A stretch of 64,000 nt of DNA from contig CM046352.1 in NCBI GenBank assembly GCA_025403435.1, forward strand, positions 470,893 through 534,892, given 5' to 3'. A program made the translations under genes and the position numbers. Source of the stretch: Artocarpus heterophyllus. Its lineage: Eukaryota; Streptophyta; Magnoliopsida; Rosales; Moraceae. Below are positions 21,732 through 64,000 of this stretch, in pieces. A model generated the notes under the pieces. That model ran no database searches. It was not told the origin of the DNA and saw only the letters and a program-made list of their open reading frames with translations. Positions within the stretch are counted from its first letter, which is position 1; each line of letters opens with the position of its first letter.

Positions 21732-21777
21732 CCAATTAGCTACGAGTGGTTCAAAGTTAACTATTGTATGTTTGATG
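19075..21777. other. upstream region of the MYB gene, AT-rich intergenic
   Basis: Holds the MYB promoter and several (TA)n tracts: about 19252-19275, 19596-19622, 20066-20083 and 21697-21730. A (GA)n run lies at 19849-19865 and a poly-T tract at about 20848-20869. A MITE-like stretch near 20560-20680 shares the AGCTTTATAxTATAG phrase. No gene supported. Confidence 0.55.
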
Positions 21778-25552: not shown

Positions 25553-25570
25553 GGTAGTATCAGAGTAGTA
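25553..25570 (+). other. primer-binding-site-like sequence
   Basis: Directly after the left LTR the sequence reads GGTAGTATCAGAGTAGTA. This resembles the initiator-Met tRNA complement (TGGTATCAGAGC) with one inserted or changed base. Confidence 0.6.
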
Positions 25571-26619: not shown

Positions 26620-26643
26620 CAAAAATTGTTAAGGATGGTAGAT
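26600..26643 (+). other. polypurine region before the right LTR
   Basis: Reads TTTTCGAGGACAAAAATTG and then AAGGATGGTAGAT up to the LTR start. This form is typical of the end of Ty3/gypsy chromovirus pol and its polypurine tract. Confidence 0.6.
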
Positions 26644-29600: not shown

Positions 29601-30436
29601 GTTGCTTGAATGCCTTTTTATGAAATATTTATATGTTATGTTATGGAAAACATTTAGGGAAATGTTTTATGATAAATATTTATGAAAAACATTTTCATGT
29701 TTTCAAGAAAAGGTTTATGAATGACGTTTTAAGCAAAACGTTCAAGAAATGTTTTACGAAAAACGTTTATGCAAAACGTTTCAGAAATGTTTTATGAAAA
29801 ATGTTTTCAGAAATGTTTATGGAAAATGTTTGTGTAAAATGTTTCAAGATAATGGTTTTTATTAGAAAAGTTTTAAAGCATGATTAAATGAATTGTGAGT
29901 TTATGTTTGAACTTACTGAGCGAAAGCTCATTAAAAGTTTTTCATGCTGTAGGTATTTTATTTGTGACCAATAGGACCCGTTAGAAGAGCTGGGTGCTGC
30001 GGATGACAGATGCAAAGATTTGGGTATGGATACCATCACTGTTTGTTTCTACTATGCAAAGAAAAGGTTTTCCATTGTTTAATATAGTGCTTTCAAAGTT
30101 TTAAGAAAATCAGAGTTTGAAGAAATGCATTCAAAGTTTTAAGATACAGTTTACGAACTGTTTTATGTAATTATAAAGTAAAGTTTTAAGCTATGATTTA
30201 ATAAATGTTTCTTATTAAGTTTCAAGAAAGGATTTGAAATGATTTTAAGGGCAAGTGTTGAGCGAGGTCTCAACTTGAAATGCGACAGAGGTCGCACCAG
30301 TTTTAAAGAACTTTTAAAGAACGTTTTAAGAAAAAAAAATTATTTCAGTACTTTTCTTACTAAGTAAGTAAGATTACTATTTACAAAACGATGTTTAAGA
30401 AAGTAAAGTGACTGCCCCAAAAGGCAGGTCATCACA
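26644..30436 (+). repeat. right LTR
   Basis: Partner of 21778-25552. Differences are mainly single substitutions, suggesting a relatively recent insertion compared with the copia element at 236-7965. Confidence 0.92.
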
Positions 30437-32738: not shown

Positions 32739-32915
32739 GCCCTTTGTGTTCATTGCTTTGCTAATTAATAATAATAAATAAAAATAATTAAAGCACCTCT
32801 GCTTTCTTTCTTATCTTTGTTACTCCACATTTAATTCAAGAATAGCGTAATTTAGGACTTTTAAGATATTGATTAGGCGTATAATGCGGTAATTTTAAGC
32901 TGTGTAACTTGTTAT
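32739..32915 (+). pseudogene. 3'-end fragment of the RAP2-11-like gene
   Basis: TGTGTTCATTGCTTTGCTAA and the following about 150 bases match the last codons, stop and 3' flank of the intact gene at about 41885-42060, including GCTTTCTTTCTT and TTTGTTACTCC, in the same orientation. No AP2 domain is present. It is a partial copy with no coding potential of its own. Confidence 0.85.
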
Positions 32916-40931: not shown

Positions 40932-41025
40932 CCAAACCAGTTTCTTCTTTCTTTTTGTCACACTCTGATTAAATTTCAAATTTCCTTTTGATCCCCCTCA
41001 CAATTTTTTGAATTTCTTAGCAAAA

Positions 41026-41907
41026 ATGGAGATCCATTTTCAGAAACAAAACCAACAATATTTCAAGACAACAGGAATTCAAAGTAGTAGCAAAACCAAA
41101 AAAGGAAAGCTCAAGGGAAGAAATAGAAACAACAACACCAACAAGTTTGTTGGGGTTAGACAAAGGCCTTCTGGGAGATGGGTGGCTGAGATCAAAGACA
41201 CAACACAAAAGATTAGGATGTGGCTTGGCACTTTTGAGACTGCTGAGGAGGCTGCAAGAGCTTATGATGAAGCCGCTTGCCTTCTCCGTGGTTCCAACAC
41301 CCGAACCAACTTCATCACGCATGTCTCCACGGATTCCCCTCTCGCCTCTCGCATTCGGAACCTCCTTAACAACAAGAAAGGAGCAAAACATCAAGAGGGT
41401 TTTGATTCCTCGCCCAAGAATTCAATCACAAAAACTAGTACTAGTAATGTTACTACTACTAACACTAACAATAGTAGTACTAGTACTAGTTCTAGTATTA
41501 ATTCTTTTAGTGGGTTATTCCAAGATGGTACTCCTATTGATCAGTTATTTGATGATGCATACAAACCAGACTTAAGTAATTGCAATGAGGAGGCAGTGCT
41601 TCAATCGCAATTCTCGACGAATCTCTCTCTCTCGTGGGGTTCTGGAGCCACGTTTGATCGGTTTCCCTTTGCTAGTAGTACTACTGATGAGCAAGTGTTG
41701 GATTTGTCAAAGAATGACCATGATCAAGCTCATGTGCCTGAGACTGCTCATCACTCGGAGTTTCTAGAGTTCGAAAGGATGAAAGTCGAAAGACAAATTT
41801 CGGCGTCGCTCTACGCTATGAATGGCGTGCAAGAATACATGGAAACCGTGCATGATCCTGCTGAAGCTCTGTGGGATCTTCCTCCCTTGTGTTCATTGCT
41901 TTGCTAA
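41026..41907 (+). CDS. RAP2-11: AP2/ERF transcription factor, RAP2-11-like
   Basis: Single-exon gene of 293 aa. The first ATG in frame is at 41026 (CAAAAATGGAG); the in-frame codon at 41008 is TTG. A single AP2 domain spans about residues 41-97 ([48 protein letters not shown]), with the YRG-type N-part modified to FVGVRQR and the RAYD element intact. A Ser/Thr/Asn-rich linker follows. The C-terminus has [12 protein letters not shown] (about 256-267) and a final [11 protein letters not shown]. These C-terminal motifs match Arabidopsis RAP2.11, an ERF that binds GCC-type sites in the nucleus and takes part in the low-potassium root response. Function here is inferred by homology. Confidence 0.9.
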
Positions 41908-42659
41908 TTAATATTATTAATTATAATAATAATTAAAGCTCCTCAGCTTTCTTTCTTTTCTTTGTTACTCCATATTTAATTCAAGATTAGTGTAGGGTAT
42001 AATTGAGGTTTAAGATATTAAGGTGAAAAATGCAGGAATTTTCAGTTGTTTAATATATCCAGCAATTTGCTTTATGAAAGTTTGTGCAGAGAACAAACCA
42101 TCTGTTAAGTTTTTTTGCTTCGAAATTTTGTATTTATTTTCTGTACAAAATTTTCTTGGTTATTCATTAGTTTCTAAGCAATTAGAGCTACGATAACTCA
42201 TAGGTTCAACTGTTACCATTTCTCATTAAAGCAAAGAAAGAAAGAAAAAAAAGAATTCCATGTTTCAGGTTTTATGATTGAAGATCTCAATTTATGTTCT
42301 ATGTGTGACTGTTGTAAGTTGTAAGTTCATTTTCTACAATTTTGGTGTGCAAAATATGACCCAACCCATTCAACCCACTAAATAGGGTATTTAAGAGCAG
42401 TTGAAATTGAAAAAGTTGGTTTGAAAATTGTAATAGCTTTATACTGTAGTAACTTTTTACTCTTTATTACAGCGGCTAAGAGCTTTATACTATTTTAATT
42501 ATTAGTCAGTTACAATCGAGACGCCAAACAACCAATAAAACTTTTATGGGATAAATTGATAGCTGAATTAAATTTTAAATCAACTATTAACTAATACAAA
42601 CTTAGTTAAGTGGGCTAAAAAATCTCAAATACCCACCCAACCAACCCGCCCTTATTCTA
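41908..42659. other. 3' flank of RAP2-11-like gene and intergenic
   Basis: The first ~150 bp are copied at 32739-32915. A MITE-like segment (TAATAGCTTTATACTGTAGTA and AAGAGCTTTATACTATTT) lies at about 42420-42530. Confidence 0.55.
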
Positions 42660-42862
42660 TGTCGTTAAGTTCCTAGCAGTTAAACGACGTGTAGTTTATT
42701 TTATTGTCAAACGACATGTCTATTTGGATAAACGGCATTCTCTTTTGGACAAAGTTTATATGAATCACCGACGAATCATGGATGAAGAAGATAATGAAAT
42801 AAGTCTCCGTCTCAAGTCGTTAATGGTGTCTTCATCTTCTTCACCTCTAAAACTAATAATCT
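42660..42862 (+). pseudogene. copy of the PPR promoter and first codons
   Basis: Plus-strand bases 42770-42858 match the minus-strand start of the PPR gene (58840 downward): AGTCTCCGTCTCAAG, GTTAATGGTGTCTTC, CCTCTAAAACTAAT. The start codon position (42799-42801) is ATA instead of ATG. The preceding 100 bp resemble the PPR upstream region. The match stops after about 20 codons. Confidence 0.85.
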
Positions 42863-43675
42863 GAAAATGCAAGGGGAGACAGAGAGTCTAACCTGAAGGC
42901 ACTGAGAGAAAATGAGTACTCACTCTCTCCCATGGTGGCCGGAGAGAGGAAGAGATATCGAAACTTTTAGAGAGAGAAAGAGAGAGAGAGAGTTGAGGTT
43001 TGGGCGAGAGGAGTGAAGGGTAGAAAAAAGGGGTTCTTGCTTTCTTGTATAGCTTTGGTGTTTGACGTGTTAAAGATTGGTGTCGTTTGAATCCATAAAC
43101 TACTATGTAGTTTTAATTGGTGTTAAGTGATGGAAGTTGGATGAAGTTTACATGAGCAAAATGACGTGTAATTGGTTTTAAGAGTTTTCCCTCGTTTCTT
43201 TTTTAGAAAACGACATCTGGTTTTATTCAAATTTTGATGTCGTTTTATTAAAAAAACAAAACACTATATAAGATGGGTCTTTAAGGCTACATGTCGCCTT
43301 TTGGAAAATGGCATAGTTTGTCAAGTTAAAGTTTGGTGTCGTTTTAGCCCATAAACGACTTGTCGCTTTTGGTATTAAATTTTGCAATTTGATGTCGGTT
43401 GAGTGGACAAAACGAGCTGCAATTCGCTTTCAAAACTTCTTGTCGTTTTATAGCAAAAGACATGCGGTTCCTCCCGGTGTTAAATTTTGGAACTTGAAAG
43501 GGTTGTTGTCACGTGTTTTGCCATGGAAAAGCTGTTTTTTATTATTTTTTAAGGAAAAGGGTAAAGTTTTGTTTTGTTTAATTAAATAAATGGCTGTCTA
43601 AAAAAAAAAAAAAAAGATAGATGGCTTGTAGATGTTGAGCAAATTATTCAATTGTACATTAATGTGAAAAAGAAA
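42863..43675 (-). pseudogene. copy of proteasome alpha-2 intron 1 edge, exon 1, 5' UTR and promoter
   Basis: The reverse complement matches 59415-60630. Exon 1 (42933-42893, 41 nt as in the live gene) keeps its ATG, its length and the CAG|GTTAGA donor, and would encode MGESEYSFSLSAF against MGDSQYSFSLTTF. Upstream it follows the live 5' UTR and promoter down to ACAATTGAATAATTTGCTCA (about 43643-43662). There is no downstream exon, so it is a headless promoter-exon copy. The long poly-C of the live gene is absent. Confidence 0.9.
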
Positions 43676-44800
43676 AAATAGACAAATTTATAATTTAAGA
43701 TTTTAGTTTTAAGTTTAGGATTTATTTTCTTTAAGACAAATAAATGGGAAAAGTCATCAACGACACCTCTGAAGAAGTTATTGATCAACAAGTCCCTTCA
43801 ATATTAGTAAGTGTTTGCAAAATATAAAAAGAGTAAAAAGTACCACATTGCTTAGGAAAGAAATGTGAGAGCTACTTAGGCTATGAATTAGTTAAATTTG
43901 AGTCCATTAAATTCCTTTTTATGAATTAGTTTACAATGAAGGTTTAACAACGGGAAAAATCATTAGCAAGATAGACACGCCTGCAGAAAAATCATTGGTG
44001 GGTAAAGACACCTCTGAAGACTTCAAGACAAAAAATCTTTGTTGCGTTATCATGGGCTGACATAGATGGGTTACTATTTATTTAAGTAGAAGGTTACTGA
44101 TTTGTACACTAATATTCCCAATCTTCTTCTTTTTTGTTCTTATTTTTTCTTTCTTTTTCATATGATGGTTGTCTCTTTAACACAATAGATGACTTGGAAA
44201 AAGAGATAAGCAAACCATATACGTTAATGAATAACTCATCTTTTTTGTCATACTCTACGAAAAAGCTCCTTTTCACATTGGTTTCAAATTTTCTTCTAAA
44301 AAATTCTTTTTAACAATTCTTTTTATTTAGCATATATTATCCAAAAAAAAAAAACCCTCATAAGAGACAACAAGTTGTCTTAAAACACATATTAATATCC
44401 TTGTTATATATCTCAACTATGTAAAAGATGTTTAGAACTGTTTTTGGGAGGGGACAATCTGTCCACAACGTTTTGTCCTCGTCTCTTTTTTTTCCTTTTT
44501 TCACTTTTTATTTGCCTTTTTCTATTTAAAAAAATATTACATCTTTTGTTTTATTTCTTCTTTTTTGTCTTTTCTTCTCAATCTCATTTTCTCCTAAAAT
44601 TTTTTTCTAATTTATTCTTATGTATATTATCGATTACATATATAAATATATTTATTGAACATAATCTTTGTAATTGTTTAATTGTCACTCTAAATTTCAT
44701 CCCATTTTTTAAGAATTTTTTTCCTTAATTTTATTTTTTGCTTTTTCATCGTTCTAATTTATGTTGTTCTTTTGCTTGTTCATTGTTTTGTCATTTTGCC
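43676..44800. other. intergenic, no gene
   Basis: AT- and T-rich. Short repeated phrases around GACACCTCTGAAGA at about 43763 and 44010. An open frame at 44444-44728 is T-rich, gives Phe/Leu runs, and is not credible. Confidence 0.5.
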
Positions 44801-46370
44801 CCTTGTTGGGGCACTTTTTTCGTTAGCTTTCACACATGAGGGTGCAGACTTTGTGACTCCTTTCTATTCGCTCGAACGCTATCTGACAAGAGCTGAAGTG
44901 GCTGCGCGTTGGGTGATGGAGCTGATTAAGTTTGCAACGGCTATTTTGGCATTATGAGTGGCCGAAATGGATTGTTTGGGCTTGCCTTGTAGTGGCTCTG
45001 GCTAGGTTACGGCTAAGGCCAGGTAGCCTAGAGGACAGTCAAGTCCGAGATGAGACCCGTTGCAATTCTGGATCCGTTGGAGATAAAGACTTTTGTTGAC
45101 AGGAATCTCCATGTGTGCGAGCAATGTAGGAAAGAAACGTGACAGGGTATGGATGAACTTCCTATGTCTAAGTGATAGAGATATGTCCCTTTGGTCAAAA
45201 TGTAATTTTTTTTATGAAATGGTAGAGTTTGATGATCCTACAGGTGGAACAGCTTCTTGAGAGAGAGATTCTTTGATGAGTAAGGTAGTTTAATACTTAA
45301 AGAGAGAAAGTTTAAAGAAGGAAATGGTGGTGGGCTTTTTAATCATGGATTTGGTGTTTCTTGGCCATGGGCTTCCTTTGAGCTATCAAAGGTCGTGACT
45401 TTGAGAGTATTTTATGCATTTTTATATTCAAGAGAGGTAATGTATGGGTTTTGTGCTTCTTTGGAGGTTGCTAGAAAATATAGAGCTTTAAGCTTTCCGG
45501 TGAAAGAAAATAAATTATTTGGGACATGGTAATACTCTTTCTTGGTTGTTTGAGGTCGACAATGAAATTTGTTGGGGCTCTTTTGTTGTAGGCCTTCACA
45601 TGCGGATGGTGTAGACTTCGTGATCTCCTTCTATTGGCTTAGTTGCTGACCAATAGGAGCTGAGTCGGCTGTACGATGGGTGATGAAGCTGGTGAGACCC
45701 ACAGTGGCTGTTTAGACTCGCCTTATAGTTGCCCGGATGGGTTATGACTAGACCCGTGTAGACTCGAGGATAGTCAAGTCTAAGGGAGACCCGTTGGAGT
45801 TCTGAACCTATTGGAGATGCTAACTTCTCTAAAAGAAACATCCAAGCATGCATGTGACGTGAGAGAGGGATGTAAATATTAATGGAGGAATTTCCTAGAT
45901 ACTTGGTAATGGTGATGCACCCATTTGTTAGAATTGTAGGACTCTTAATGAAAGGATGAGGTTTATTAGTCCAACGGGAAGAATAGTCCCACAAGAAGAT
46001 AGCTGCAACGGGTGGGTTAATTTAAGGCTAGAGAGAGGTTTTAGAGAGAGAAGGAGATGCGAACCATTCATGGTGGCTTTTTGGTTCTCCTTGTGCTTAG
46101 GGTTCATTGGGACATGGATAGGGTTGACTTTAAGAGACAGTGATATTTTCAGGTTCTAATTGGAATGTGCAAGTATCTTGGATGCTCTTGAAGCTTGCTA
46201 GAAAAAATGGAGTTTGGGTTGTGATAATGTTTCTTCTAGATGGCATTGAGGTCGAGGATGAGATTAACGAGTGTTTTGGGGTGATTTTATGGTATTTCGT
46301 GGTGGAGACATGGTGATTTGAGCTTGAAAAGATGGTGGCTATGGTGGTTCTAGGGTGGAGAAGATGATGG
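44800..46370 (+). repeat. two diverged tandem units of an unknown repeat (~765 bp)
   Basis: Unit 1 (about 44800-45590) and unit 2 (about 45590-46370) share ordered landmarks. The opening block is TTCACACATGAGGGTGCAGAC / TTCACATGCGGATGGTGTAGAC. Later both have GTCAAGTC...GAGACCCGTTG, TTGCTAGAAAA and GAGGTCGA. Divergence is high. No protein recognised. Confidence 0.55.
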
Positions 46371-49300
46371 TTGTGGTGGTTTTGGATACTTGATGCTTTC
46401 TCTCTCTTTTACTTTAAGTAGAATGGGTTCATTAGCCTCTTTTCAAGGGTGTTAGAGATGGTATTTGTAGAGAAAAAAATACAGTTCTAGTTTTGTTGGG
46501 CTTCTTCTATTTCGAGCACTTAACTGGGGGTAGTTCCACGCCTGGTTCCGCAAGAATAGCTATATGTGGCAACAGCCCATGGGGGAAGATTTTCCCTCTA
46601 GATTCAAACTTGGTCTTTGGGACAAAATTGAGCTTGTCAGGAGCATTAATGGCTAGCCGATCCAAAGGTGCCATTTTGGGTGGCCTACTGCTGGGGCATC
46701 CATATGACAGGGGTCTTGTTTTGCCATTTTGAGCAAGAGTCAGACCTAGTAATAGGGTTCCCTCTGACCCGCCCCTAATTAAGGGGAGTTTGTCTCTGAC
46801 CGCATGTAATGACCGAGAAAACGTCATCAATAAAACCTAATATTTAATTAGGTTTAATTAATGAATTTATTCTTAAAAATGTGAAATTGTGTAAAAATTG
46901 TAATTTATGTGAAAATTACAATAAAATATGAATGAGCAACATTGATTGCAAATTTTATGGCATATGTAATGCAATGGTGGATATTATAAAATACAAATTT
47001 TATGAGTTTGATGACTCAGAGATTTGTGCATAATATCCATAAAATGAATTTCATGTCACAATTAATTGTGAAATTGTGATATAAACGAATGAATGATTAG
47101 AATGTAAATAGGACATAGAGGTTGTCCTAACCCTAACCGGGGGTAGAAAGGAGGCCAGAGCAGTATAAGAATACTGCTAAATAAAAACACAGATATGAAA
47201 AATGTTATGATTGGCCTTAAAAAGTAAACGAAAAGTAAGTTAAATATTTTTATACAGTCTAAGGATAGAAAGTACACTGAATTGGCCACGGCAGTATAGG
47301 AAAACTACTGTGTGGTGAAAAATTACACAGTATAAATTTTTAACTCCATAAAGTGGACACTTTTTGCTTTTCTATTGGGCCACATGTCAAGAAAAGTGGC
47401 CCAATCATTTTGTGACACCTAGTGGTGTACTCATGGGTTACCATGAGTCACCAAATGAGATAAACATGCATTTATGGCAAGTTTATCAAAGTTTTCTTTT
47501 CTTTTCTTTCCACCAAAGTTTCGGCAGCCATAGTTCTGCTCCTAAAAAAAATTTCTCAGCCCCAAATCTTGCAAAAATAGCCCCCAACAAATTTTACAAG
47601 CAAGAACAAGGATTTTCCACAAGTTTAAGGTAAAATCCTAAACTTTTAATGGGTTTTCAAGGGATTTTTCATGGGCAAAGGACAAGAGATTAATCCATGG
47701 TATTTTTGTATGGAAAGGAAGCTTAGGAGGGAGTCTAAAAGGATTTTGAAAGCTTCAAACCAAAAGGGTGTCATTTTGGTAAGTTTTAAGCTTTAAAGTT
47801 TGAAATTTTATAGATTTTGTTTTGATTTTTGTTCTTTCAAACCCATGAGGGGTTTTGAACATGTATTTGATGGAAGTTCATGTATATGTGGTGTATGATA
47901 AGTTTGAGTTATGGAAATTTTTGTTTTAGTGTAAATCGGCAATTTTTGTAAAAATGATATTTTTGTAATTTTGAGGTTAAACTTTGCAAAGATGATGTTT
48001 GAGCATGGGAATGTATTGATTAAGGTATGAAATGATTTCTGCAGGGGTAAAATTGCAAGTTTGAAATGGATTTATGTAAAAATGCCATAGGGACTAAATT
48101 GAAAGGAAAAAATTCCTCTCGGCAGAATTGGAAATTAGCCAAAAACACCCCTGTACAGTGATATTTTGGAAAAAGTTAAAACACAAAAGTTGTAGATCTC
48201 GATGAAACTGTTAGGCATCGTGGACGGTTCATCAAAAAACTGATTCGTTTATGAGATTTTAATTTTTCAAGAATTTATGGAAATTGTGAAAAATTTGAAA
48301 AAGGGGCAAAAACGTCATTTCTCAAAGGATTTTGAATATGATACTTTGAGCAAAAATGATCCTTGACAAAAATAGAAAATTCTGGTGCAAAGAAGTAAAT
48401 TTTAGTTTCGGGGGCAAAAAGGTCAAAATTTTCGGTTCATGGGCTAAACCGTAAAGTTTAATGAAAATGGGGCATAATTGAGAAATAAAGAGATTTGACC
48501 CACTAGGATGTTATTTTAGAATGAATATATGGTTATTTTATAAGAATAACGAAATCGAGCTCGAGTAGGTTAGTAAACCTGCGGAGGGCAAAATCGTCAT
48601 TTCTGCCCAAATAACCCGAACTGCTTTGAAATGTTCCAAATGGGATAAGAAAACGACTAGAAAGGTTTCCACCCTTCGTTAGAAACGATATGGTGAAGTT
48701 AGATAGAAATAAGAAAAAACGGTGGTTTTTAGAGTTAAACATAGTAATGCAACTCAATTTATTAACTAACAAATGTTTCGTATTGAAACATAGTAAAATT
48801 TGGCTAATGGCTTTGTAATTGGCCAACAGGATCCTAGGAATCTAGAAGAAAGGATATCGTGGTTAAGTTGTCCGACAATTGCATCAAGTAAGTACCCATC
48901 CCACCTACAGTATGAAATTGTAGGCTTAGAGTATAAAATGTGTATATGTATACTTGTATGTATATCAAGGTGTATACTTGTATGTATGCAATAACATAAG
49001 TATTTATAAATAAAAGAAAGGGTATACTTGTGAGTATATGGAATATATATATATGCCTGAGCGTATATTAATGCATACCAGTGTGTATATTTTATGTTAA
49101 GTACCTGTTAGTACATTATGCTATATATACCTGAGCGTATATTAATGTATACCAGTGTGTATATAAAGTATGTACCTGTATGGTCTATATCGTACAAAAG
49201 TATTTATGTAGATTATGTTATGTATAACATGTACTCATCACTTCATGCATGGTATGTTAACCATAATAAGTGAATTGGTAATGAATCACCAAAAGTTAAG

Positions 49301-51262
49301 AAAAGTGTCGTACCGACTCCTGACTCAAGGGGAGTTTAAGGATTACAGGATGGTCACGGTGTTACGTAGACCTAAGTGCGCAATGGTACGAACACTTGGG
49401 CCCTAGTTAAAGATAAGAAATGATAAGGATAATGAAGGATTATAAGAAAGCATAATATGATCATGCATTTTATTGAATGTGCATGTGGGTTTATATGGGA
49501 CTTACTGGGCGTTAGCTCATTAAGTTTTTCATGCTGTAGGTATTCCGACAAAAAGGTCAGAATAAATCATAATGATGAGCTGGCGGACGGATGATGTGTG
49601 CAGACTGGGTATGGTTTCCGCCGCAGTATGTTTTCCGCTGTATGATATTTTAAATTATTTTGAAAGTAATGTTTGATAAGCTATATTGTAAGAGAAGGAT
49701 GGTTATGTAAACACAAGTATATGTATGTATCTCACAGGTTATTAAACAATATATGTACAGTATTTGTATTAAAAAAAAAAATTTCCTAAATTTTTGCCCT
49801 AAAGTAATGAAGAAAGAGTTTAATCACAGCCCGAAAAGGCGGGTTGTGACACCGCAGGAGTCACATGTCCCTACATTAGAGCTTCCCCCACAGGTGCGCC
49901 AATAAGGCTAACGTGACGGGTGAGTTGGCGCGACGATATATTACCACATTGACGGGCCACAAATGGGCTTTTTCCTAATGCTGGGCTTGAACTTCTAAGT
50001 TTTTTGGCCTTTTTTCACTCTAAGTCCTCCATACCTATTTTATTCTAATCCCAATTAGATTTAAAACTCTGCAAGTGAGTTAAAAGTCAAATTAGACAAA
50101 ATAAAATGGGCCCATTTGTCAAATTGGATAAAATAAAATGGGCCCATTTACTTCTCTTGGCCTTCCAAATCACAGCCCACTTGAAGGACCCCCACCTCAT
50201 GGTTTGGGTCCATGTACCTTACTTTGGGCTATATTGTTAAACATGGGCTGGGCCTTTAATTTGTGAAAAAACAAGCATCAACAAAGTTTATAGGAACTTT
50301 GAGGTCGTTTGGCAGTGGATTGAGGTGGTTATGTGATGGTTGGAGCCTAATGGAGGTGGCGGCCATGGAGTTTCATGGTGAAAGAAAGGTGGATATGGAA
50401 GGACATAAGGGTGGTTATGGAGCTTAACTTAGTTTTGCTTTGGTGGTCTGAGTAGAATGGGTAGCATTGGTTGCATTAGTGGCATTAGTCTCTCTAAGAG
50501 TGATGAAAAGGGGTATTTATAGGGGGAAGAAAGAATTCTAGTTTGGTTGGAAATCTTCCATTTTGGGTGTCTAGTTGGGAGAGTCCTAGGTTCTGTTCTG
50601 CGGGAGCAGCCATAAGTAGAAACTTCTTGCCATGGAAGATTTCCCTCTTAGATTTGAATTTGGTCTTCCACATGGGACTAGGCATGTCAGGAGCATTAAT
50701 GACCACAGACCTAGGAGGGCCACTTTGGGTGACCTGTCATAAGGGCATCAAAAAAGAAGGAGTTTTGCCTTGCTGTTCCAGGCAAGGATCAAACCTTAGG
50801 ATTGGGTTTCCTCTTAACTGGCCTTGATTAGGGGATAACTTGTCTCCTGTTATAGGGGTCACATGACTCTATGGCTAGTTTCCTTGGGTGGACTTCTAAG
50901 TTGACCTGCAAGTAAGCGAACGCCTCAAGTGGGCCATAATGGCTGATGTGTCATGTGGGCCAAAAAAATGGGCTTTTTCTATTATTGAGCTAAGGCTTTT
51001 GGAATAAGTTTATTGGCTTAGTTCTACTCCAAATTCCTTCATACTCATTTTATTCTAACTCCAATTAGACTTAAAACCTCTCAAGTGAGTTAAAAATCTA
51101 ATTAGACCAAATAAAATGTGCCTATTCATGTTCCTTGGCCTACTAAACTACGGCCCTCTTAGAGGATCTTGGGACGTGTTTTGGGTCCACGTGCCTTAAG
51201 GCCATATCATGGGATATTGGTTGGGCTTGTGCGTTGTAAAAAAATAGGTTTCAACACCCTTT
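46371..51262 (+). repeat. two diverged ~1-kb repeat units, the first split by a solo LTR
   Basis: Unit A (about 46371-46804 continued at 49857-50284) and unit B (about 50290-51262) share an ordered set of blocks. These include GGTATTT[G/A]TAGRG, TAGTTGGGAGAGTCC-like text, TTTTATTCTAA(T/C)(T/C)CCAATTAGA, AAGTGAGTTAAAA and GGTTTGGGTCCATGT / TTTTGGGTCCACGTG. They end in CATCAACA / TTTCAACA. Possibly LTRs of an old element; identity unknown. Confidence 0.55.
46805..49851 (+). mobile_element. solo LTR, Ty3/gypsy-like (3.0 kb)
   Basis: Starts TGTAATGACCGAG and ends GGCGGGTTGTGACA, with the perfect 5-bp target duplication CCGCA (46800-46804 and 49852-49856). It shares with the LTRs at 21778-30436 the block TTTTTCATGCTGTAGGTATT (49528 region) preceded by a TTAGCTCATTAA-like phrase. 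It also shares the terminal CCCGAAAAGGC. This places both in one broad LTR lineage. No internal domains or partner LTR. Confidence 0.9.
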
Positions 51263-51499
51263 TTAAATTAACTTATTTTAAATATATCCCTGATCATTTC
51301 ACCTTAAGTTTTATCCCTTTTTTACGAATTTTTTTCTTATTTATTTATTTGCTTTTTCATTGTTTTGATTTATGTTTTTCTTTGCTTCTTCATTGCTTTC
51401 TCATTTTACCCTTGTCAACATAACTTCTTTCAAATGTATCCCAGATCATTTTACAATTTCATTTTCTATATATTTTTTTAAAATACTTTTTGGGCTCTT

Positions 51500-52220
51500 T
51501 ACATACATGCCACCAAGAATAAAGCTGAGATTGGTTTATGCCACGTAAAAAAAAATAATAATAATTGCAGAGAACGCATGCTATATCATCACTCTATTTA
51601 AAAATGCCAAATATGCCCTCAATGTTTATTTACATTCATGTCATAAATGTCACATTTACACAGTAAATATTTTTCCAGTAGTGAATGAATCATTAACCAT
51701 GTAAACATAACATTTAACAATAATATTCAATCTGTTTGACTTATATATAAGAACAAGTAAATATCATGTATGAGTTGTAAATGAGTCATTCAAATGTAAA
51801 TAAGTCATTTACAAACAATATTCAATTTGTTTGACTTATATTTAAGAACAATTAAATATCACGTATAAGTTATTTAGCAAAAAAAAGTATCATGTGTAAG
51901 TTGTAAATGAGTCATTTACCGTCTAAATGTAACATTTACCTATAATATTCATTATGTTTGACTTATATATAAGAACATGTATATATAATGTATAAGTTGT
52001 AAATTTACACAGTAAATGTTTTGTTTACCAACATAACAGGTCTGTTTTACCAATTGCAAATCAATCATTGATCATGTAAACGAAACATTTCCCAAGATCT
52101 AATTTAAGGGTATTTTAGTGAGGACATTAAATTTTGGTCATGCCATTGTGGCATGTTTTCAAGTAATGTTTGAGTTAATGGTTTAAACTAATCCAGTAGA
52201 AAATTGTATGGCATGTAGCA
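51500..52220. mobile_element. MITE-like element with internal tandem units
   Basis: Near-inverted ends (TACATGCCACC at about 51503 and the complement of TATGGCATGTAG at about 52208) enclose three ~100-125-bp units starting at about 51720, 51816 and 51942. Each has TTTGACTTATATxTAAGAAC and GTTGTAAATGAGTCATT. No TSD was established. Confidence 0.35.
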
Positions 52221-52362
52221 TTAATATATTTACTTTGTCCTCTCACTTACTCCTACTAAAATATATTGTTGAGTTTTTTTGTTTGGCCCATTACAATAAA
52301 TTTTCCCCTGAAACATGTGTTCTTTCTAAAATTTCTTTCATACCATCCTTTCAACTTTTTCC

Positions 52363-52564
52363 TTTTTTTCTTAATAAATGTATTTTCCCTAATTTGTTCA
52401 TGTTGAAGAATTGAAAGGCGTTTTTTCCTTTACTCCTATTATCATAATTTAACTTTTTTCTTTTTCTTTGTTTCTTTTTTTCTTAATAAATGTATTTTCC
52501 CTAATTTGTTCATGTTGGAGAATTGAAAGGCATTTTTTCCTTTACTCCTATTATCATAATTTAT
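52363..52564 (+). repeat. 112-bp direct tandem duplication
   Basis: CTTAATAAATGTATTTTCCC and the ~90 bases around it occur twice with period 112, differing at only a few positions (TTGAAGAATT against TTGGAGAATT; AGGCG against AGGCA). Confidence 0.85.
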
Positions 52565-53159
52565 TTCATATGCATTTGTTCTTAACTTTTTTTTATTTTT
52601 ATTTTTATTTTTTGGCCAAAGATCTTTTATAGTGCCATCATTTTTAATGTGTTGCTTTTAATAGTTTTTTCTCCACATGTTCCTACTGAAATATAATTTT
52701 TTCATATATACCCCTATTTATTTATTTTTCCTTTATAACTCATTATTTTAAAAGGGATGCTCATAATGATGTTTGTGTAAGTTTCATATTAAGCAACAAC
52801 TAATTAAAATATTTAATGTTAAGTAAATTAAAAAAATAAAGACATGATAATTAAAACTTAACACATAGATGGAGCCTACAAAATGACTCTAGCACTTGGT
52901 GGAATTCAGCTAGTGTGTGTACATATACGCACACATCAATGCAACTAAAATTACATATCGATGTTATATATGTACTATCTCCAAAACAAACAATGTTCTA
53001 TGTATATGCGTGTGTGTGTGTATATATATATGTATCTAAAAGATATTAATATTATCTTTTATATATTTTCATATCGCATTAGGAACCTCCATAACAAGAA
53101 GAAAGGAGCAAAACACCAAGACGTAATAAATTGAAAACAAAAAACAAAAAACAAAACAA
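52565..53159. other. AT-rich intergenic with a 47-bp ERF gene fragment
   Basis: 53074-53120 matches 41349-41395 of the RAP2-11-like coding sequence at 43 of 47 positions (GGAACCTCCxTAACAA; AGAAAGGAGCAAAACA). A (TG)n(TA)n microsatellite lies at about 53009-53030. Nothing else seen. Confidence 0.75.
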
Positions 53160-54995
53160 AAATCTTAGAAGGCCACAAACTGCCACCAAACGGAATCAGG
53201 TAAAAATGTTAATATCAATGTTGTGATGGAAACCAAATTTATATAATCTCCACAAATAAGATAGAACTTCATGGAACATGGTGCCTTTTTTGCTCTTCCT
53301 AATTGGCAAGAGCAGTATCTGACAATTTGCATACCCAGTTGGGGTTCCAAAGCCCAATGAGCAACCTCATGAGCTGACTTATTACACATTCTCTGAACCC
53401 AGGACGGTTTAAAATAAGAACCGAATAACAGGCGGATTAAGCAGTTCAGTCATCTGGTGGGTGAGCCGAGATCAAAGCGTCACCCACTACCTTGGCATCC
53501 AACTCAACCGTGAAATTAGACATTCCCAGCCTTCGAGCAGGCAAACACGCCATTTCAATAGCCAAGAGCTCCGCCTCTAAGACACTCTCTGCCTGCGTTA
53601 CTTGAGAGATAACACCAAGGACCGGTCTTTGACTATACCGTACTACAAATCCAAGGCCCGCTGTACCATTTCTGAAGGCTACATCTACATTCAATTTTAG
53701 GCAGTTTCCAACCAGAGGACTCCATCTAGGGATAGAAAATTGAGCAGTGCAGGGCGTTAAATCAGATATCTGTTGATACTACATACGCCTGCATTCCACA
53801 TGATGGTTGACAGAATAATTAACGCGTCAAATCAGGTCCCAAACATCCCCAATCAGGCCCTTATGCTTCCTAGTATTTTTGTTTGTCCACAGCAGCTCCA
53901 TAAGAGTAGCAGCATGCAGAATCTTCTCCCAATCTCGCCCTTAAATAAAACCAACTTATGTAAGTTCATGTGTCATGCACTTCAAACTTTTGAAGCAAAA
54001 ATGATAAATAGCAAAAGATATTCAAGTTATTCTACCGTTGGTACAAAATGGACAGTCATAACATCCGGGGATATAATAAATATCTGGCACCAATCTGCCT
54101 ATGGTTCAGCACTATGCTAGAGTGGATATTTGGCAAACACAATAAAGTTTCTAAATCAGTCCAACAGAGATTCTTCTCTAAAGGCTATCAATTATCCACA
54201 AGGAGTGAAACCAAATAATAAGAAATCTACCAGTGCTCGAAGCTGAAGCCTTTTAGTCATAAACCTATTGCCTTGTAGTGCTGCTCAAACCAAGAAATTC
54301 ATTTGTCTAAAGACAATGCGAACAATTTGTAAAATACTTTCAAACAGAGTAATCAGAAGCCACAAAATAAAACCTGTAAGCAACTCCAATATTTGGCGTC
54401 AAACTTTGTATCTTCTGAACCTGCAAAAAACAAAATCATACTTCATATCTTTTTGGAGGCACGGACAGAATGCAGTGCGTCTAAAACTACACAATTATGG
54501 TATTCCATAAATGTTTTTGTGCATTAACAAACATTTTAAATTAACTACAATGCAAAGGACACGAGAAAACCAGGTAAGAAATATTTAGATTTTCAATTTG
54601 TTTGATCACCAAAATTCATTCAATTGGGGTTGAACATAAGATCAAGAAAATGAAATAGAGAACGTAGCAACAATATAACCGGTAGAAAATACAATATTGA
54701 TGCAAAGTGCAAACAATCACATTCCTTTCTCATTCTTTTGCAACACCCCTTCGTAGAAAGCAATAATTCATCATGAATTAGAAAACGTAAAAAGATTGTG
54801 AGGACACATTCCCCCCCAAAAAAAAAAAAAAAAAAATTGAAATGAAATACGTACTACTATCATACCCGAAGATTCAATTCCTAGGAATTTGAGTTTATAT
54901 AGGTTAAAATCAAATCAAGCTTTAGGTTTTTTCAATGTAATCCACTAATCCTAATCAACCTTAGCTATAAGGATTTAGTTTTAGTTTCAAATTAA
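53160..54995 (-). pseudogene. inverted copy of proteasome alpha-2 introns 3-4 with exon 4
   Basis: The reverse complement follows the live gene from about 61610 to 63035. Shared blocks include TTTGTGTTTGCACTTTGCA-like text (54700), CCAAGAAATTCATTT (54289), ACTTCAAACTTTTGAAG (53978) and AGGCCACAAACTGCCACCAAA (53169). Exon 4 (54420-54374) has the same 47-nt length and intact AG/GT sites, and would encode the live exon with one Val-to-Ala change. No other exon is present. A LINE RNase H fragment interrupts it at about 53311-53946. Confidence 0.9.
53446..53750 (-). pseudogene. LINE RNase H domain fragment (RVT_3)
   Basis: The minus-strand translation has KLNVDVAF, GLGFVVRYS, then VLEAELLAIEMACLPARRLG and NFTVELDAKVV. 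This order (D of the NVD strand, E of the EAELLA helix, D of the ELD strand) is that of the plant RNase H-like domain found at the end of L1-type LINEs. It is a fragment within the proteasome-intron copy. Confidence 0.75.
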
Positions 54996-55123
54996 TTTAT
55001 GTATAGCAGTGCTAAAATTTATGTATCATATAATTTAGAACTGCCAAACAACAACTAAACAGCGGCAAATAAAGAATGCAAGGAGACTAAAACAATTGTA
55101 TTAACAAGATAAGAAGCTAAACC

Positions 55124-55367
55124 CACATCAAATATCTTGGTGTCAATATCTATACCAATAATGTTTGAAGCACAAGTTGCTTTTGCACCCTCTGTAACCT
55201 GTAATGTAACAATCATATTCAGCAATATAAAAGTGAAGCATTTACCAGAAGGAAATAACTAAAGGCCCACAAGGAAACTTACTGCGAGACCAATAGTCCT
55301 AAAACCCAAAACAACAGCAACAGAGCCAGGTTCTACTTCTGTCATGTTCCAGACAGCTCCGACACCT
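55124..55367 (-). pseudogene. class III alcohol dehydrogenase (GSNOR-type), two-exon fragment
   Basis: On the minus strand, exon X (about 55367-55283) encodes GVGAVWNMTEVEPGSVAVV then LGFRTIGLA. An intron with GT...AG follows. Exon Y (55198-55124) encodes VTEGAKATCASNIIGIDID and TKIFDV. The joined frame is that of the NAD-binding fold of S-(hydroxymethyl)glutathione dehydrogenase. The glycine-rich loop is altered (LGFRTIG where GLGxxG is usual). No upstream catalytic domain or downstream exon is present in the window. Confidence 0.8.
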
Positions 55368-55708
55368 TACTTTACTTTTGGTTCACAATTTGAACCGCGG
55401 TTCAAATCTTTTTGCTACAGCATTTTTTCTAACAGAAATTTGAATTTCTGTTCAAACTCGTGAACTAAATGGGACATATGTAGCAATGAATACGGTCAAA
55501 ATGAAGACGTACTAGGTGCCCTCAACTTGAATGAAGACTGCAGGACATAACCTGTTGAATTGGCTAAAGTTCATTTACCTGCGAAAAAAGTATACGCTAT
55601 TACAATTGTGCAATCTTAAACAGAATTTATAAAACCTATATATAAAACAGAAACTACTATTGAAAAAATAACTCATGCATAAAAAAATATTCTTCTCCTA
55701 TGAATTAC
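55368..55708. other. 3' flank of the PPR gene
   Basis: No recognisable coding sequence. A short inverted pair around TTGAACCGCGGTTCAA lies at 55391-55406 and AACAGAAATTTGAATTTCTGTT at about 55430-55451. It probably carries the PPR 3' UTR. Confidence 0.5.
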
Positions 55709-58700: not shown

Positions 58701-58840
58701 TCGTATTGATGGTGAAGAGGAAAGCTACGATGAGAAGTGGGTAAACAACTGCTCGGAATTCGATGGTGGTGATGATGAAGATTGATTAGTTTTAGAGGAG
58801 GAGAAGAAGATACCATTAACGGCTTGAGACGCAGACTCAT
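55709..58840 (-). CDS. DYW-class pentatricopeptide repeat protein (At4g13650-like)
   Basis: Intronless, 1043 aa. The N-terminus (about 1-45) is rich in Ser, Pro, Arg, Leu and a His run with few acids, as in organelle transit peptides. About twenty or more PLS-type PPR motifs follow ([20 protein letters not shown] and similar). Then come E/E+ regions ([31 protein letters not shown]) and a C-terminal DYW domain. The DYW deaminase has HSEK (HxE), CRDCH (CxxCH) and ends in CRDYW, so the zinc and catalytic residues are present. Such proteins bind organelle transcripts and carry out C-to-U editing at defined sites. Closest remembered relative is Arabidopsis At4g13650. The RNA target is unknown. The gene is divergent from the proteasome gene. 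Confidence 0.93.
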
Positions 58841-60545
58841 TTCATAGTCTTTTCTTCATCGATGATTCGTCATCCATTCAAAAAATTTGTCCTTGTTTTC
58901 TTTTGGACGACATGTTGTTGATATATACATATATAATAACTACATGTCGTTTAGATGTTCGATTTAATATTCGAGTTGTTATTAAACTACTTTAAAAGTT
59001 ACGACCAAAACAAAACGAGGCTTTTATCACGAGAAAGGATATGTCGTTTTTGTTAAAAAAAACGACATCTCAGAGTTTTAAGCAACAACTGCATGTCGTT
59101 TTCTCTATGTAAATGAAAACAAACTTGCAGAATTTGAAAAAAACGACATCAATTTTTACACAATAACTACTTGTCGTTTTGTCTAGGAAAACAAGCTTGC
59201 AAAATTTGACGCCAGCCAAAAGCTATGCTGTATTTATGTAATTGAACCATGCTCATCGTTACTTAAGGGAAAAAAAAAAAACGTTGCTAATATTTATTTA
59301 CTCCATTTTGACTGATTTTTCATTTTTTTTTTATATCCAATTCAACTCATATTTGATTAGATTGGAGTAGTCTGTTATCTGATTATTCTCTAGATCTACA
59401 AGTTCATTTATATGAGTACAATTGAATAATTTGCTCAAGAATCAAGAGCTACAAGTCATTTATCTACTTTTTTTTTAAGCAAAGTCGTTTATTTAAATAA
59501 ACAAAACTTTACCATTCTCCTTAAAAAAATAAAAAAACAAAAAACAAAAAACAACAACATCCAAAACAAAAAACAAAACGAAAATTTATCATGGTAAAAC
59601 ACGCGAGGAACATAAATCCAGTAAAAGGGGTTAAAAAAAGGCTAGAAGTCGATTATATACCCAAACAACACCAAATTTAACATTCCATAACAAACCATTT
59701 CTAGCTTTTACAAAAACGACAGCCTACATAAAACTAAACCACTATAAACACCAACTACATGTCACTTCTAAACCACGTTAAACTTGAATAAATCAATACT
59801 TAAGACTACAAATCGTTTATGGACATGATTCGTTGCAAAACTTTAAAAAAAAAAAAGGACAGGAGAAACAGCATGTCGTTTTCTACAAAAACGACAACAA
59901 AATTTTGAAAACGGGATTACGGGTCGTTTTGTCCACGTAAATGACATCAAATTGCAAAAAAATTAACACCAAGAGCGACTAGTCGTTTATGGACTCAAAC
60001 GACCCCAAACTTTAACGTCACAAACTATGTCATTTTAAAAAAACGACATGAAATTTTTAAGACCCATCTTTATATCGTTTTTATCAAATTTAAACGAAAT
60101 CAGATTTTCAATCTTGACATTGATAAACTAGATGTCGTTTTTCTTAAAAATAAAGGAAGGAAAACTTTACACACACCAATCACATGTCGTTTTGTCCATG
60201 TAAACGACATCAAACCCGCAAAATTTAACACCGCAAGCTAACTTTTATGGATTTAAACCACGTTCATCTTTTATTCTTTATCAAGACAAAGTCGTTTAAG
60301 CAATCAAGCACACGTGCTTTGCACGTGCGTGCCTCTCTCTCTCTCTCTTTTTTCTTTTTTTTTTTTTTTTGGAGAAAAAACAGACCTTCTTCTTGAACAA
60401 GAAAGGCAGCAAAAAACCCACCTTTTTCTACCCTGCACCTCTCTCGCTCAAACCTCAACTCCTCCCCCCCCCCCCCCCCCCCCCCCCCCCCTCTCTCTCT
60501 CTCTGTCTCTAAAAGTTTCGATTTCTCTTCCTTTCTCCGGCCGCC
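58841..60545. promoter_or_regulatory. shared intergenic region of PPR and proteasome genes, with repeats
   Basis: 1.7 kb between divergent ATGs. It contains about twenty TGTCGTTT or AAACGACA units, often as pairs (ATGTCGTTTTGTCCATGTAA then AACGACATCAAA), in degenerate units of very roughly 80-100 bp. The last 250 bp hold CT-rich and C-rich proteasome 5' UTR sequence. Parts are copied in inverted form at 42660-43675. Confidence 0.75.
60464..60491 (+). repeat. 28-base poly-C tract
   Basis: An uninterrupted run of 28 C in the presumed 5' UTR of the proteasome gene, 54 bp before the ATG, followed by (CT)n. The copy near 42960-43000 lacks it. Confidence 0.95.
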
Positions 60546-63500
60546 ATGGGAGACAGTCAGTACTCATTTTCTCTCACTACTTTCAGGTTAGACTCTCTCT
60601 CTCCCCCCGTGCATTTTCGTTCTCAGATGCTCTATTATTCATAATTTTCTACCATTGACACGGCCGGTACTTGTTTATCAGTCCTTCGGGAAAGCTGGTT
60701 CAGATCGAGCACGCCTTGACAGCCGTCGGCTCCGGCCAAACCTCTCTCGGGATCAAAGGTAAAATTTTCTTTCCACTCAAATGGTTTTTCTAGGGTTCGC
60801 TGTTATCCGTTGAATCGATGATGAAAACATTGACGAGCGATCCCTAATTGAAATGTGGAATTAAAAAAAAAAAAGAAGAGGATTTTGGTTTCAATTTGGA
60901 GGGAATTTAGCTGTGGTTTTGTGGAAAGATCGAAATTTTGATTTGGTGTTGGAAACGAAGTTTTACTGATGTTTAGCTGGTCATTTTGCAGCTGCTAATG
61001 GTGTTGTTATCGCGACTGAGAAGAAGCTACCTTCAATCTTGGTTGATGAGACATCTGTAAGTGCCTCTAATCAGTTCCTGGGAAGGACCTAATTTCGAAA
61101 ATAACTATATTTTAGTATAATTTCGAAGATTTGTGATTAATTGTGGCTATAACAATGAATTTGTAGAAGTTACAGTAGTACTAAATTATCGTTACCTAAA
61201 CATGTGCTTAACAAACTGTCATTTTAGTGTATGGTTATTTTGATTGGTTATTATGCATGTTAGTTTGGAACTTTTGGACTTGATCATACACATAAAGCTA
61301 TTTCTTCCCATGACATTGTATGTTTGTTGTATTAATGTGTTTGAGGATTTCCTTTTATGTTTTGTTCTTTTCACCTGGAACATTTTTTCATGAAGTCTTT
61401 AGTTTTTCAATTTCTTCTTTGCTAGGTTTTTCTTTTCTGTTCTCTGCTTTTTACTCTTTCCTTCTTTTATGTTCTTTGTTTAGGAGAATCTAATCCTCTT
61501 TTCTTTTGTACTTTGTAAGTTTCCTTTGAGGAGGCTTCAGCTTCTTCCCTTGGGTGAAGGACGTAATTGCATATAAATAATATCCTAAATAATTCGCATC
61601 AAGAACACCTAGGCAGAAACTCAAACTATATCCTTATAGCCAAGGATAGTTAGGATTAGAGGTTTGTCTCAAAAATTTTGAAAAACCCAAAACTTGATTC
61701 TATCCAATATAAATCCTGAGAATTGAATCTTCAGGTATGAAAGTAGTAACTAGTTCCTTTCAATTTTTTTTAGATTTTTTCCGCACAATCTTTGTATGTT
61801 GAATTAACTAGAAAACAAAGGGGAGTAGCAAAAGAAAGACAAAGGAATGCAATTGTTTGCACTTTGCACTCTTGTATTTTCTTTAGGTTATATTGTTGCT
61901 TTGTTCTCTATTTCATTTCCTTGAACTTGTATTCAGGCCATTCTAGTGTGTTAAGGTGATCAAAAAAATCGTAAAATTTAAATTTCTGACCTGGTTTTCC
62001 CATGTCCTCTGCATTATAGCTAATTTTAAATGTTTGTTTCATACACAAGAATAATTATGAAATATTGGACCCGTTTGGTAGTGTTTTCAAAATAGGTGAA
62101 AGTAGTTTTGTTTTGGAAAATGAGAATTTTTGGGGAATTATGCTGAGAGTGTTTTTGAAATTTTTGCCTCAAAAAATATGTAAAAAATTTCCAAAAACTT
62201 CCAAAACAATACGAAACAGGGCATCATGTTTGCATAATTTTAGAAGCGGTCCTTTCTGTCCATGCCTCCAAGAGTATTTGAAGTATGATTTTGCTTATTG
62301 CAGGTTCAAAAAATACAAAGTTTGACACCAAATATTGGAGTTGTTTACAGGTTTGCTTATGCGGTTTCCAATTGAAAATACTGTGTTTGAAAATATTATG
62401 CAAGTTATGACTACCATATTTTCTTTAGATGAAATGAATTTCTTGGCTTGAGCAGCATTATAAGGCAATAGGTTTATGACTAAAAGGTTTCAGCGTAGAG
62501 CACTGGTTGATTTCTTATTTTTGGTTTCACTGGACAAAACCAGCATACCGTGTGGATAGTTGATAGCTTTTAAACAAGAATATCTGTTGGACTGATTTGG
62601 AAATGTTATTGTGTTTGCCGAACTCTAGCATAGTGCTAAACTATTGGCAGAAGATAATATTTGCCAGATGATTAGTGAAATTAAGCACCATCGGAATATT
62701 CAAGGTGTCTTGGGTTGTTATGGCTGTCCATTTTGTACTCACTTATGTCTTTTATCGTGGGATGTTAGAATAACTTGAATATCTTTTGTGAATCATCATT
62801 TTCACTTCAAAAGTTTGAAGTGCATGACTCATGAACTTAAATATGTTAGTTTGTTTAGTCTACTCGGTATAAATATAGTCACATGCATATTCAGTTGTTG
62901 TTGCCAATTAGGAAGAACCAAAGGCACCATGTTTCATGAAGTTATATATTATCGTGGAGATTACAAATTTGGTTTCCACCAACACATGCATATTAATATC
63001 TTCACTGTTTGGTGGCAGTTTGCGGCCTTCTAGGATTTTTTTTAATTACATTTTGATACTTTCATGTTTCCAGCTTCCAACTTTTTAATTTCGTTCTGCT
63101 CTCTCCTGCAGTGGCATGGGTCCTGATTTTCGAGTCTTGGTCAGGAAAAGTAGAAAGCAAGCTGAACAATATCATAGGTTATACAAGGTACTATATGTTT
63201 TTCACTTTTTTTTTTATTTTCTTTTAATCCAACGGGGGTCTTTGGATTGCAGTTATTCATCATTCTCATTGCAAATGTGTATTAACAGTTTCATATTCAA
63301 ATATCTCTTTTGTAGGAACCAATACCTGTTACTCAACTTGTTAGGGAAACTGCAGCTGTGATGCAGGAGTTCACCCAATCTGGGTAATGAAAAGGCTACT
63401 GCTTTATTAGGACACATTCTATTTGACAAATATCAAGTTTGAAATAAGGAAAAAAAAAACCTGAAATAAATTGAGAAATTTGAAAGCTAATGATCATATT

Positions 63501-64000
63501 TATCCGGCTATTTCATCTGGTTTCTAAAACGAATTTTGTATAAATAATTCCTCTACACCACTTTACCCATTGCTGTGTTGTTGATGGATCTAATATCTTT
63601 CTTTCTTTTTGGGCAGTGGTGTAAGGCCTTTTGGAGTCTCTTTACTTGTTGCTGGGTTTGATGACAATGGTCCTCAACTCTTCCAGGTAACTTCTATTCC
63701 CCCAAGATTTGTTTGTTTGGATTAGTTTATGGGGAAAAAAAATAAATTTTAGCCTTGTTAGCTTTGATTTTTCCCAATTTTGCAAGTATTTTTAAGTTTT
63801 TTAGCTTAGGTTTACTTGGGTGTGAGACTGACTATCCAGAGATATATGTATTTTTCCATCAAATACTGGTAGTAATATTTACTTCGTTACTTGTAATGGA
63901 ATTTATTTCTTACCTTGGCAGTGATATCAACAGGTGCTTTAACCATTACTATGTTGCTTTTATTCTCTAGGTTGATCCATCAGGTTCATATTTCTCATGG
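60546..64000 (+). CDS. PAB1: 20S proteasome subunit alpha type-2 (partial, runs off the window)
   Basis: Exons: 60546-60586, 60682-60758, 60992-61056, 62304-62350, 63112-63187, 63316-63383, 63617-63686 and 63971 to the window end. All have GT-AG junctions and join in one frame, giving 158 of the usual ~235 residues. The N-terminus MGDSQYSFSLTTFSPSGKL, followed by QIEHALTAVGSG, is the alpha-subunit signature that gates the core particle. Later blocks GVVIATEKKLPS, GMGPDFRVLVRKSRKQA and QSGGVRPFGVSLLVAG match alpha-2 (PSMA2/PAB1) rather than other alpha types. It forms part of the outer ring of the 20S proteasome in cytosol and nucleus; alpha subunits are non-catalytic. Intron 3 (1.25 kb) and intron 4 (0.76 kb) are copied in inverted form at 53160-54995. 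The 3' part lies beyond 64000. Confidence 0.95.

What the first reader, a model, noticed from the sequence alone, without database searches (positions are those of the whole stretch)
42660..43675. Inverted, circularly permuted copy of the PPR/proteasome gene heads
At the live locus, reading the reverse strand, the order is proteasome intron 1, exon 1, promoter, then PPR promoter and PPR ATG. In the copy, read on the plus strand, the PPR promoter and first ~20 codons come first (to about 42858). The proteasome intron 1 edge, exon 1, 5' UTR and promoter follow (42863-43675). The two halves are swapped around a junction at about 42860. Such a permutation is what re-insertion of a circular DNA intermediate would give; a tandem duplication with deletions could also do it. 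The copy has a lost PPR start codon but an intact proteasome exon 1 and donor site.
Basis: partly seen in the sequence, partly recalled or inferred. Interest (0 to 1): 0.8.

Follow-up and report, generated by a model that had tools for sequence, protein, structure and literature searches.

The report
Scrambled relic of duplicated proteasome gene
A plant chromosome carries the broken front ends of two neighbouring genes in swapped order, most likely a scrambled remnant of an old mirror-image duplication whose other pieces survive nearby and on a sister chromosome; it is a neat fossil of known kinds of DNA rearrangement rather than a new system.

Summary
Window 42747-43657 (possibly 42660-43675) carries the PPR head joined directly to the proteasome alpha-2 (PSA2) intron-1 edge, exon 1 and promoter, inverted and circularly permuted relative to the live locus 58779-60618. 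A second inverted PSA2 piece lies at 53153-54988, and the homoeologous region on contig C25 holds the complementary 3' half of an inverted PSA2 copy beside the ERF gene. Site patterns place the split of all three remnants from the live gene before, or about at, the C25/C26 split, so this is not a recent copy of today's locus. Best reading: an old inverted duplication decayed differently on the two homoeologs, and on C26 its head was displaced and permuted. The junction 42862/42863 jumps 1.84 kb back in live coordinates, blunt or with 4-base microhomology. Circle reinsertion is the most economical single event; backward template switching or tandem duplication plus deletion is nearly as good. 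The outer ends are 0.4-0.5 kb apart in the live locus. No outgroup was available. Known kinds of event; modest interest.

The parts
42747..42862 (+). PPR' head: 5' leader plus about 20 degenerate codons of the DYW-PPR gene; start codon ATA; the frame meets a stop just past the junction
   Evidence: 81% to live 58892-58779; 0 of 300 shuffles; translation
42655..42746 (+). possible further PPR' upstream sequence, marginal
   Evidence: score 32 against best shuffle 31 of 300
42862..42863 (.). permutation junction joining live 58779 to live 60618; blunt, or ATCT microhomology with a 6-nt indel
42863..43657 (-). PSA2' head: intron-1 start, exon 1 (MGESEYSFSLSAFR, donor intact), 5' UTR, promoter
   Evidence: matches live 60618-59416 in pieces; translation
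42381..42546 (.). dispersed repeat left of the copy
   Evidence: 40 of the 41 matches are other places, all within this stretch
43659..43728 (.). low-copy repeat at the right edge of the copy
   Evidence: 3 of 16 rows (C4, C19, C12)
44416..52920 (.). repeat nest separating PSA2' head from PSA2' body; the same repeat family near both edges (from 44.42 kb, and 51.26-52.92 kb), other repeats nested inside
   Evidence: 46.64-50.80 kb was not searched
53153..54988 (-). PSA2' body: introns and exon 4 (VQKIQSLTPNIGVAY at 54376-54420); matches live 63043-61616 inverted; interrupted at 53340-53941
53340..53941 (-). insertion in PSA2' body with a reverse-transcriptase-like (RVT_3, RNase H-type) frame at 53449-53778
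54998..55369 (-). alcohol dehydrogenase class III gene fragment abutting PSA2' body; relatives on C10 and C9
55709..58840 (-). live PPR-DYW gene, 1043 aa; no close second copy among the matches listed
58779..60618 (.). live segment equivalent to the copy: PPR head, shared upstream region, PSA2 exon 1 and start of intron 1
60546..64000 (+). live PSA2 gene from its start codon (continues past the window end)
41008..41907 (+). AP2/ERF gene flanking the remnant on the left; anchor shared with C25

Best explanation
Before the C25/C26 homoeologous regions separated, the PPR-PSA2 region was duplicated in inverted orientation, giving ERF - PSA2' (inverted) - PPR - PSA2. PSA2' became a pseudogene and decayed differently on the two homoeologs: C25 kept its 3' half, C26 kept pieces of its 5' half. 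On C26 the PSA2' head with the attached PPR' head no longer lies on the PPR side of the body, where an unrearranged inverted duplicate would have it; it lies on the ERF side and is circularly permuted. The most economical single step is that the segment equivalent to live 60618-58779 was excised or copied as a roughly 1.8-kb circle, closed at the 58779/60618 junction, opened in the upstream region (between live about 59000 and 59400) with loss of a few hundred bases, and reinserted next to ERF. Shown: order, strand, junction, complementary remnants on C25, symmetric site patterns. Inferred: that the three remnants come from one duplication, the ancestral order, and the circle itself. The structural part, shared with the first rival, I hold at about 0.75; the confidence given is for the version with the circle.
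For: Order and junction. Inverted body remnant in the same interval. Complementary inverted tail remnant on C25 next to ERF. Collinear homoeologous block, window 35308-82341 against C25 689652-648225: 9 of the 15 rows lie on this diagonal, 2 are the inverted remnants, 4 are a repeat family off it. Site patterns dup=C26 / dup=C25 / C26=C25: head 24/32/54 of 507 columns, body 31/39/98 of 898, C25 tail 81/96/137 of 1974; in all three the 95% bootstrap interval of dup=C26 minus dup=C25 spans zero. With a C1 stretch as rough outgroup, derived sites shared by C26+C25 9, dup+C25 5, dup+C26 1, over 342 columns. One circle event explains both the displacement past the body and the internal swap; inversions of the blocks would change their strand, which is unchanged.
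Against: The outer ends are not adjacent in the live locus (0.4-0.5 kb). The divergence ratios (dup-live over C26-C25) of body (1.90, 1.52-2.33) and tail (1.28, 1.11-1.46) do not overlap, so those two may differ in age or rate; head (1.48, 1.18-1.92) fits either. Body and tail cover different parts of the gene, so they cannot be compared directly as one copy. The body abuts an ADH fragment from elsewhere, which suits patchwork insertion. No outgroup genome was available to show the ancestral order. In the C1-rooted count dup+C25 exceeds dup+C26, on very small numbers.
Confidence: 0.44

Rival explanations
1. No circle: tandem duplication of the head segment, or a backward replication template switch (MMBIR/FoSTeS-like), made the same 58779-to-60618 junction in the old inverted duplicate, and deletions then left only the permuted piece.
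For: A tandem-duplication or backward template-switch junction is identical to a circle-closing junction; blunt or ATCT microhomology fits. Both outer ends look lossy.
Against: Does not by itself explain why the head lies on the ERF side of the body; it needs extra copies or a further move, plus deletions.
Confidence: 0.3
2. Patchwork repair: the C26 pieces (PPR head, PSA2 head, PSA2 body, ADH fragment, perhaps a 48-bp ERF-like piece) are separate filler copies laid down during break repair before the homoeologs separated, unrelated to the C25 tail remnant.
For: Mosaic of fragments including ADH class III with relatives on C10 and C9 and an ERF-like 48-mer at 53074-53121; body and tail divergence ratios do not overlap.
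Against: The PSA2-locus pieces are all inverted and lie in the same syntenic interval where C25 holds an inverted PSA2 tail; coverage is complementary.
Confidence: 0.15
3. Direct copy of today's C26 live locus after the C25/C26 split (the simplest form of the first reader's idea).
For: One stretch (42863-42988) is 89% identical to live C26.
Against: The copy shares no more sites with C26 than with C25: 24 against 32 of 507 columns.
Confidence: 0.04
4. Capture by a transposon (Helitron or Pack-type) that carried the gene heads.
For: Repeats lie at 42381-42546, about 43659-43728 and about 43801-43887.
Against: No long terminal inverted repeat brackets the copy: the 24 arm pairs in 42000-44450 are at most 34 nt and AT-rich or promoter-motif pairs. 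None of the 16 rows is another copy spanning the junction. Helitron termini were not tested.
Confidence: 0.05

Closest known systems
eccDNA-mediated duplications in human (Takahashi and Innan 2020, PMC7188851; abstract and section 6 read)
   Same: Duplicated fragment with swapped block order, explained by circularisation, opening elsewhere and reinsertion
   Different: Their three cases are about 20-130 kb and 95-97% identical; here about 1 kb remains of a 1.8-kb segment, 76-89% identical, in a plant, with decayed ends and no outgroup
Circular intermediates of human segmental duplications, A-B/C-D to B-A/D-C (Chicote et al. 2020, PMC7450558; abstract and section 7 read)
   Same: Order swap, and junctions with only short indels or microhomology
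   Different: In 8 of their 16 pairs closing and/or opening points were resolved to the base (gains or losses of 1-27 bp, microhomology of 1-2 bp); here only the closing junction is resolved and 0.4-0.5 kb is missing at the opening point
Cattle colour-sidedness KIT translocations Cs29/Cs6 (search listing and start of abstract of PMC12235870 seen; the circular mechanism is recalled)
   Same: Order change attributed to circular intermediates
   Different: Large, recent, with a phenotype
Differential decay (fractionation) of duplicated genes on homoeologous chromosomes (recalled; no paper read; search returned 0)
   Same: Different parts of one old gene copy lost on each homoeolog
   Different: Here it is a pseudogene from an older inverted duplication, and one remnant is also permuted

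Membership tests
Circle-mediated (eccDNA) duplication | Block order swapped relative to source, strand of blocks preserved relative to one another | tested here: met
Circle-mediated (eccDNA) duplication | Closing junction blunt or with microhomology or short indel | tested here: met
   (not specific to circles)
Circle-mediated (eccDNA) duplication | Outer ends of the copy adjacent in the source (opening point) | tested here: inconclusive
   0.4-0.5 kb apart in the live locus; loss in the copy and gain in the live locus could not be told apart
Circle-mediated (eccDNA) duplication | Empty acceptor site in a relative | tested here: inconclusive
   No head copy found beside ERF on C25, but that interval holds the PSA2' tail instead; no relative genome is held
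Inverted duplication older than the homoeolog split | Remnants on both homoeologs; copy about equidistant from both live genes | tested here: met
Inverted duplication older than the homoeolog split | All remnants of one age | tested here: inconclusive
   body and tail ratios do not overlap; rates of decayed sequence may differ
Transposon gene capture (TIR type) | Terminal inverted repeats around the captured pieces | tested here: not met
   (42000-44450 and 52900-55700)
Transposon gene capture (Helitron type) | Helitron termini | not tested
   no call made
Whole-genome duplication pair C25/C26 | Collinearity beyond this locus | tested here: inconclusive
   A block of about 47 kb is collinear; the wider test with L055 and L056 did not complete

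The most novel reading that the evidence does not exclude
A plant nuclear gene-head segment that moved within its own locus through a small circular intermediate, leaving a permuted fossil of an old inverted duplicate whose other remnants survive on both homoeologs.
Probability: 0.3. Interest if true: 0.45.

Novelty: new member of a known kind. Interest (0 to 1): 0.28.

Why it matters
If the circle reading holds, it would be a small natural example of genic circular DNA reinserting in a plant chromosome. [quoted passage not shown] It also warns that a 'copy of the live locus' can really be an older duplicate whose complement lies on the sister chromosome. It changes no known gene function.

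Tried and rejected
Rejected: chance similarity; a recent copy from the live locus; a third source locus (16 rows, 20 rows; both lists are lower bounds); a PPR homoeolog or remnant on C25 (tblastn of 620001-690000 gave 4 rows of 16-21% identity at a PPR-like frame about 30 kb away); a close second PPR copy elsewhere (39 rows at E up to 1e-100, 44 of 1424 candidates scored: the second-best row is 40% identical, the highest identity among the others 49% over part of the protein); terminal inverted repeats. The AAACGAC/GTCGTTT-rich upstream stretch also matches other places (C1, C228, C16, C2), so the upstream match alone is weaker evidence than the exon and PPR-head matches. Led nowhere: a literature search for reciprocal loss (0 papers); filler-DNA and template-switch searches, of which I saw listings only.

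Full report
What is there. I take it to be a plant from its DYW-PPR and AP2/ERF genes and from the closest solved proteasome subunit, 7qve_i (first of 60 rows shown of 235; that this entry is a plant proteasome is recalled). The live PPR gene (55709-58840, minus, 1043 aa) and the live PSA2 gene (proteasome alpha-2; start codon at 60546, plus) stand head to head. At 42747-43657 their heads recur inverted and permuted: PPR head 42747-42862, then PSA2 intron-1 edge, exon 1 and upstream region 42863-43657. Each of the four pieces tested beat all 300 shuffles.

Junction and ends. The copy passes from the PPR reading (..CTAAAACTAATAATCT) into intron 1 (GAAAATGCAAGG..). Both sources have ATCT near the switch, so the join is blunt or uses a 4-base microhomology with a 6-base indel. 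In live coordinates it joins 58779 back to 60618, a step of 1.84 kb. The right end stops at 43657, or by eye at up to about 43675 (live 59416 or about 59398), where it meets a low-copy repeat (3 of 16 rows). The left end is 42747, or marginally 42660 (live 58892 or about 59000). The two ends are therefore not adjacent in the live locus today. By eye, the C25 live upstream region also loses its similarity to C26 near the same right-hand point (about 59415), so part of the 0.4-0.5 kb may be later change in the live locus; I could not settle this.

Wider setting. A further inverted PSA2 piece lies at 53153-54988 (live 63043-61616), with exon 4 legible and an insertion at 53340-53941 that holds a reverse-transcriptase-like frame. 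It abuts an ADH class III fragment at 54998-55369 and a dispersed repeat at about 55365-55485. Between head and body, 44.42-52.92 kb appears to be a repeat nest (46.64-50.80 was not searched). Without it the head and body remnants would be about 1 kb apart. The C25 block is collinear over window 35308-82341 against 689652-648225: of 15 rows, 9 lie on this diagonal, 2 are the inverted remnants and 4 (window 1190, 2079, 72439, 72440) belong to a repeat family off it. C25 holds a live PSA2 and, next to ERF, the 3' half of an inverted PSA2 copy at 664398-672798 (the last 70 bases at only 73%), interrupted by a 6-kb insertion flanked by a 10-base repeat with one mismatch. No PPR gene of useful identity was found in C25:620001-690000.

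Age. On cleaned three-way alignments (gapped columns, and columns whose surroundings are under 60% identity or too gapped, dropped) the counts dup=C26 / dup=C25 / C26=C25 are head 24/32/54 of 507, body 31/39/98 of 898, tail 81/96/137 of 1974. The uncleaned counts, made for head and body only, point the same way: 38/43/71 of 584 and 38/50/116 of 981. A copy made from C26 after the split should share more with C26, and the C25 tail more with C25; the first is not seen, and the second (96 against 81) is within the bootstrap noise. So the remnants split off before, or about when, the homoeologs separated. Faster change in decayed copies inflates C26=C25, so I rely on the symmetry of the first two numbers. 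The ratio dup-live over C26-C25 is 1.48 for head, 1.90 for body and 1.28 for tail; body and tail intervals do not overlap, which counts against a single event unless rates differ.

Mechanism. An unrearranged inverted duplicate would read ERF - tail' - body' - head' - PPR' - PPR. C26 reads ERF - PPR' - head' - body' - PPR with every block still inverted and tail' not found. Inversions of blocks would change their strand; moving the head'-PPR' segment as a circle does not, and also gives the swap in one step. Equal-looking junctions arise by tandem duplication or backward template switching, and the ADH and ERF-like scraps suggest that patchwork insertion happened here too. I hold the structural reading (old inverted duplicate, displaced and permuted head) at about 0.75 and the version with a circle at 0.44.

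Comparison. Two human studies describe the same signature: swapped order, and in the second also junctions with only short indels or microhomology (PMC7188851 abstract and section 6; PMC7450558 abstract and section 7). Here the order and closing-junction criteria are met, while the opening-point and empty-site criteria are not resolved. In the listings (15 of 26 papers shown; 10 of 18 shown) I saw no title or abstract start that reports a plant nuclear case, but I looked into only one plant paper, in passages (PMC10462705), so I make no claim of priority.

Noticed in passing
window 21768-30436: Large direct repeat: 21768-25552 matches 26635-30436 at 94% over 3.8 kb, probably a young tandem duplication
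   Followed up: no
window 53074-53121: 48-bp piece 92% identical to part of the nearby ERF gene (41349-41396), next to the PSA2' body; 81% to the C25 counterpart
   Followed up: partly
C25:664769-670799: 6-kb insertion in the C25 PSA2' tail flanked by a 10-base direct repeat with one mismatch, possibly a Mutator-like element (the label is recalled; element not examined)
   Followed up: partly
C25:657500-663090: About 5.6-kb stretch splitting the C25 live PSA2 upstream region, with a 38-bp perfect direct repeat at 657500-657537 and 663053-663090
   Followed up: no
window 58900-60300: Upstream region rich in AAACGAC/GTCGTTT motifs; parts match a few other loci (C1, C228, C16, C2)
   Followed up: partly
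window 60464-60491: 28-base C run (G run on the minus strand) in the live PSA2 5' region, not present in C25 or the copy; possible assembly-sensitive spot
   Followed up: no
window 32741-32907 and 41884-42053: 80% identical repeat of about 170 bp at the ERF 3' end and upstream of it, hinting at an older ERF-side duplication
   Followed up: no
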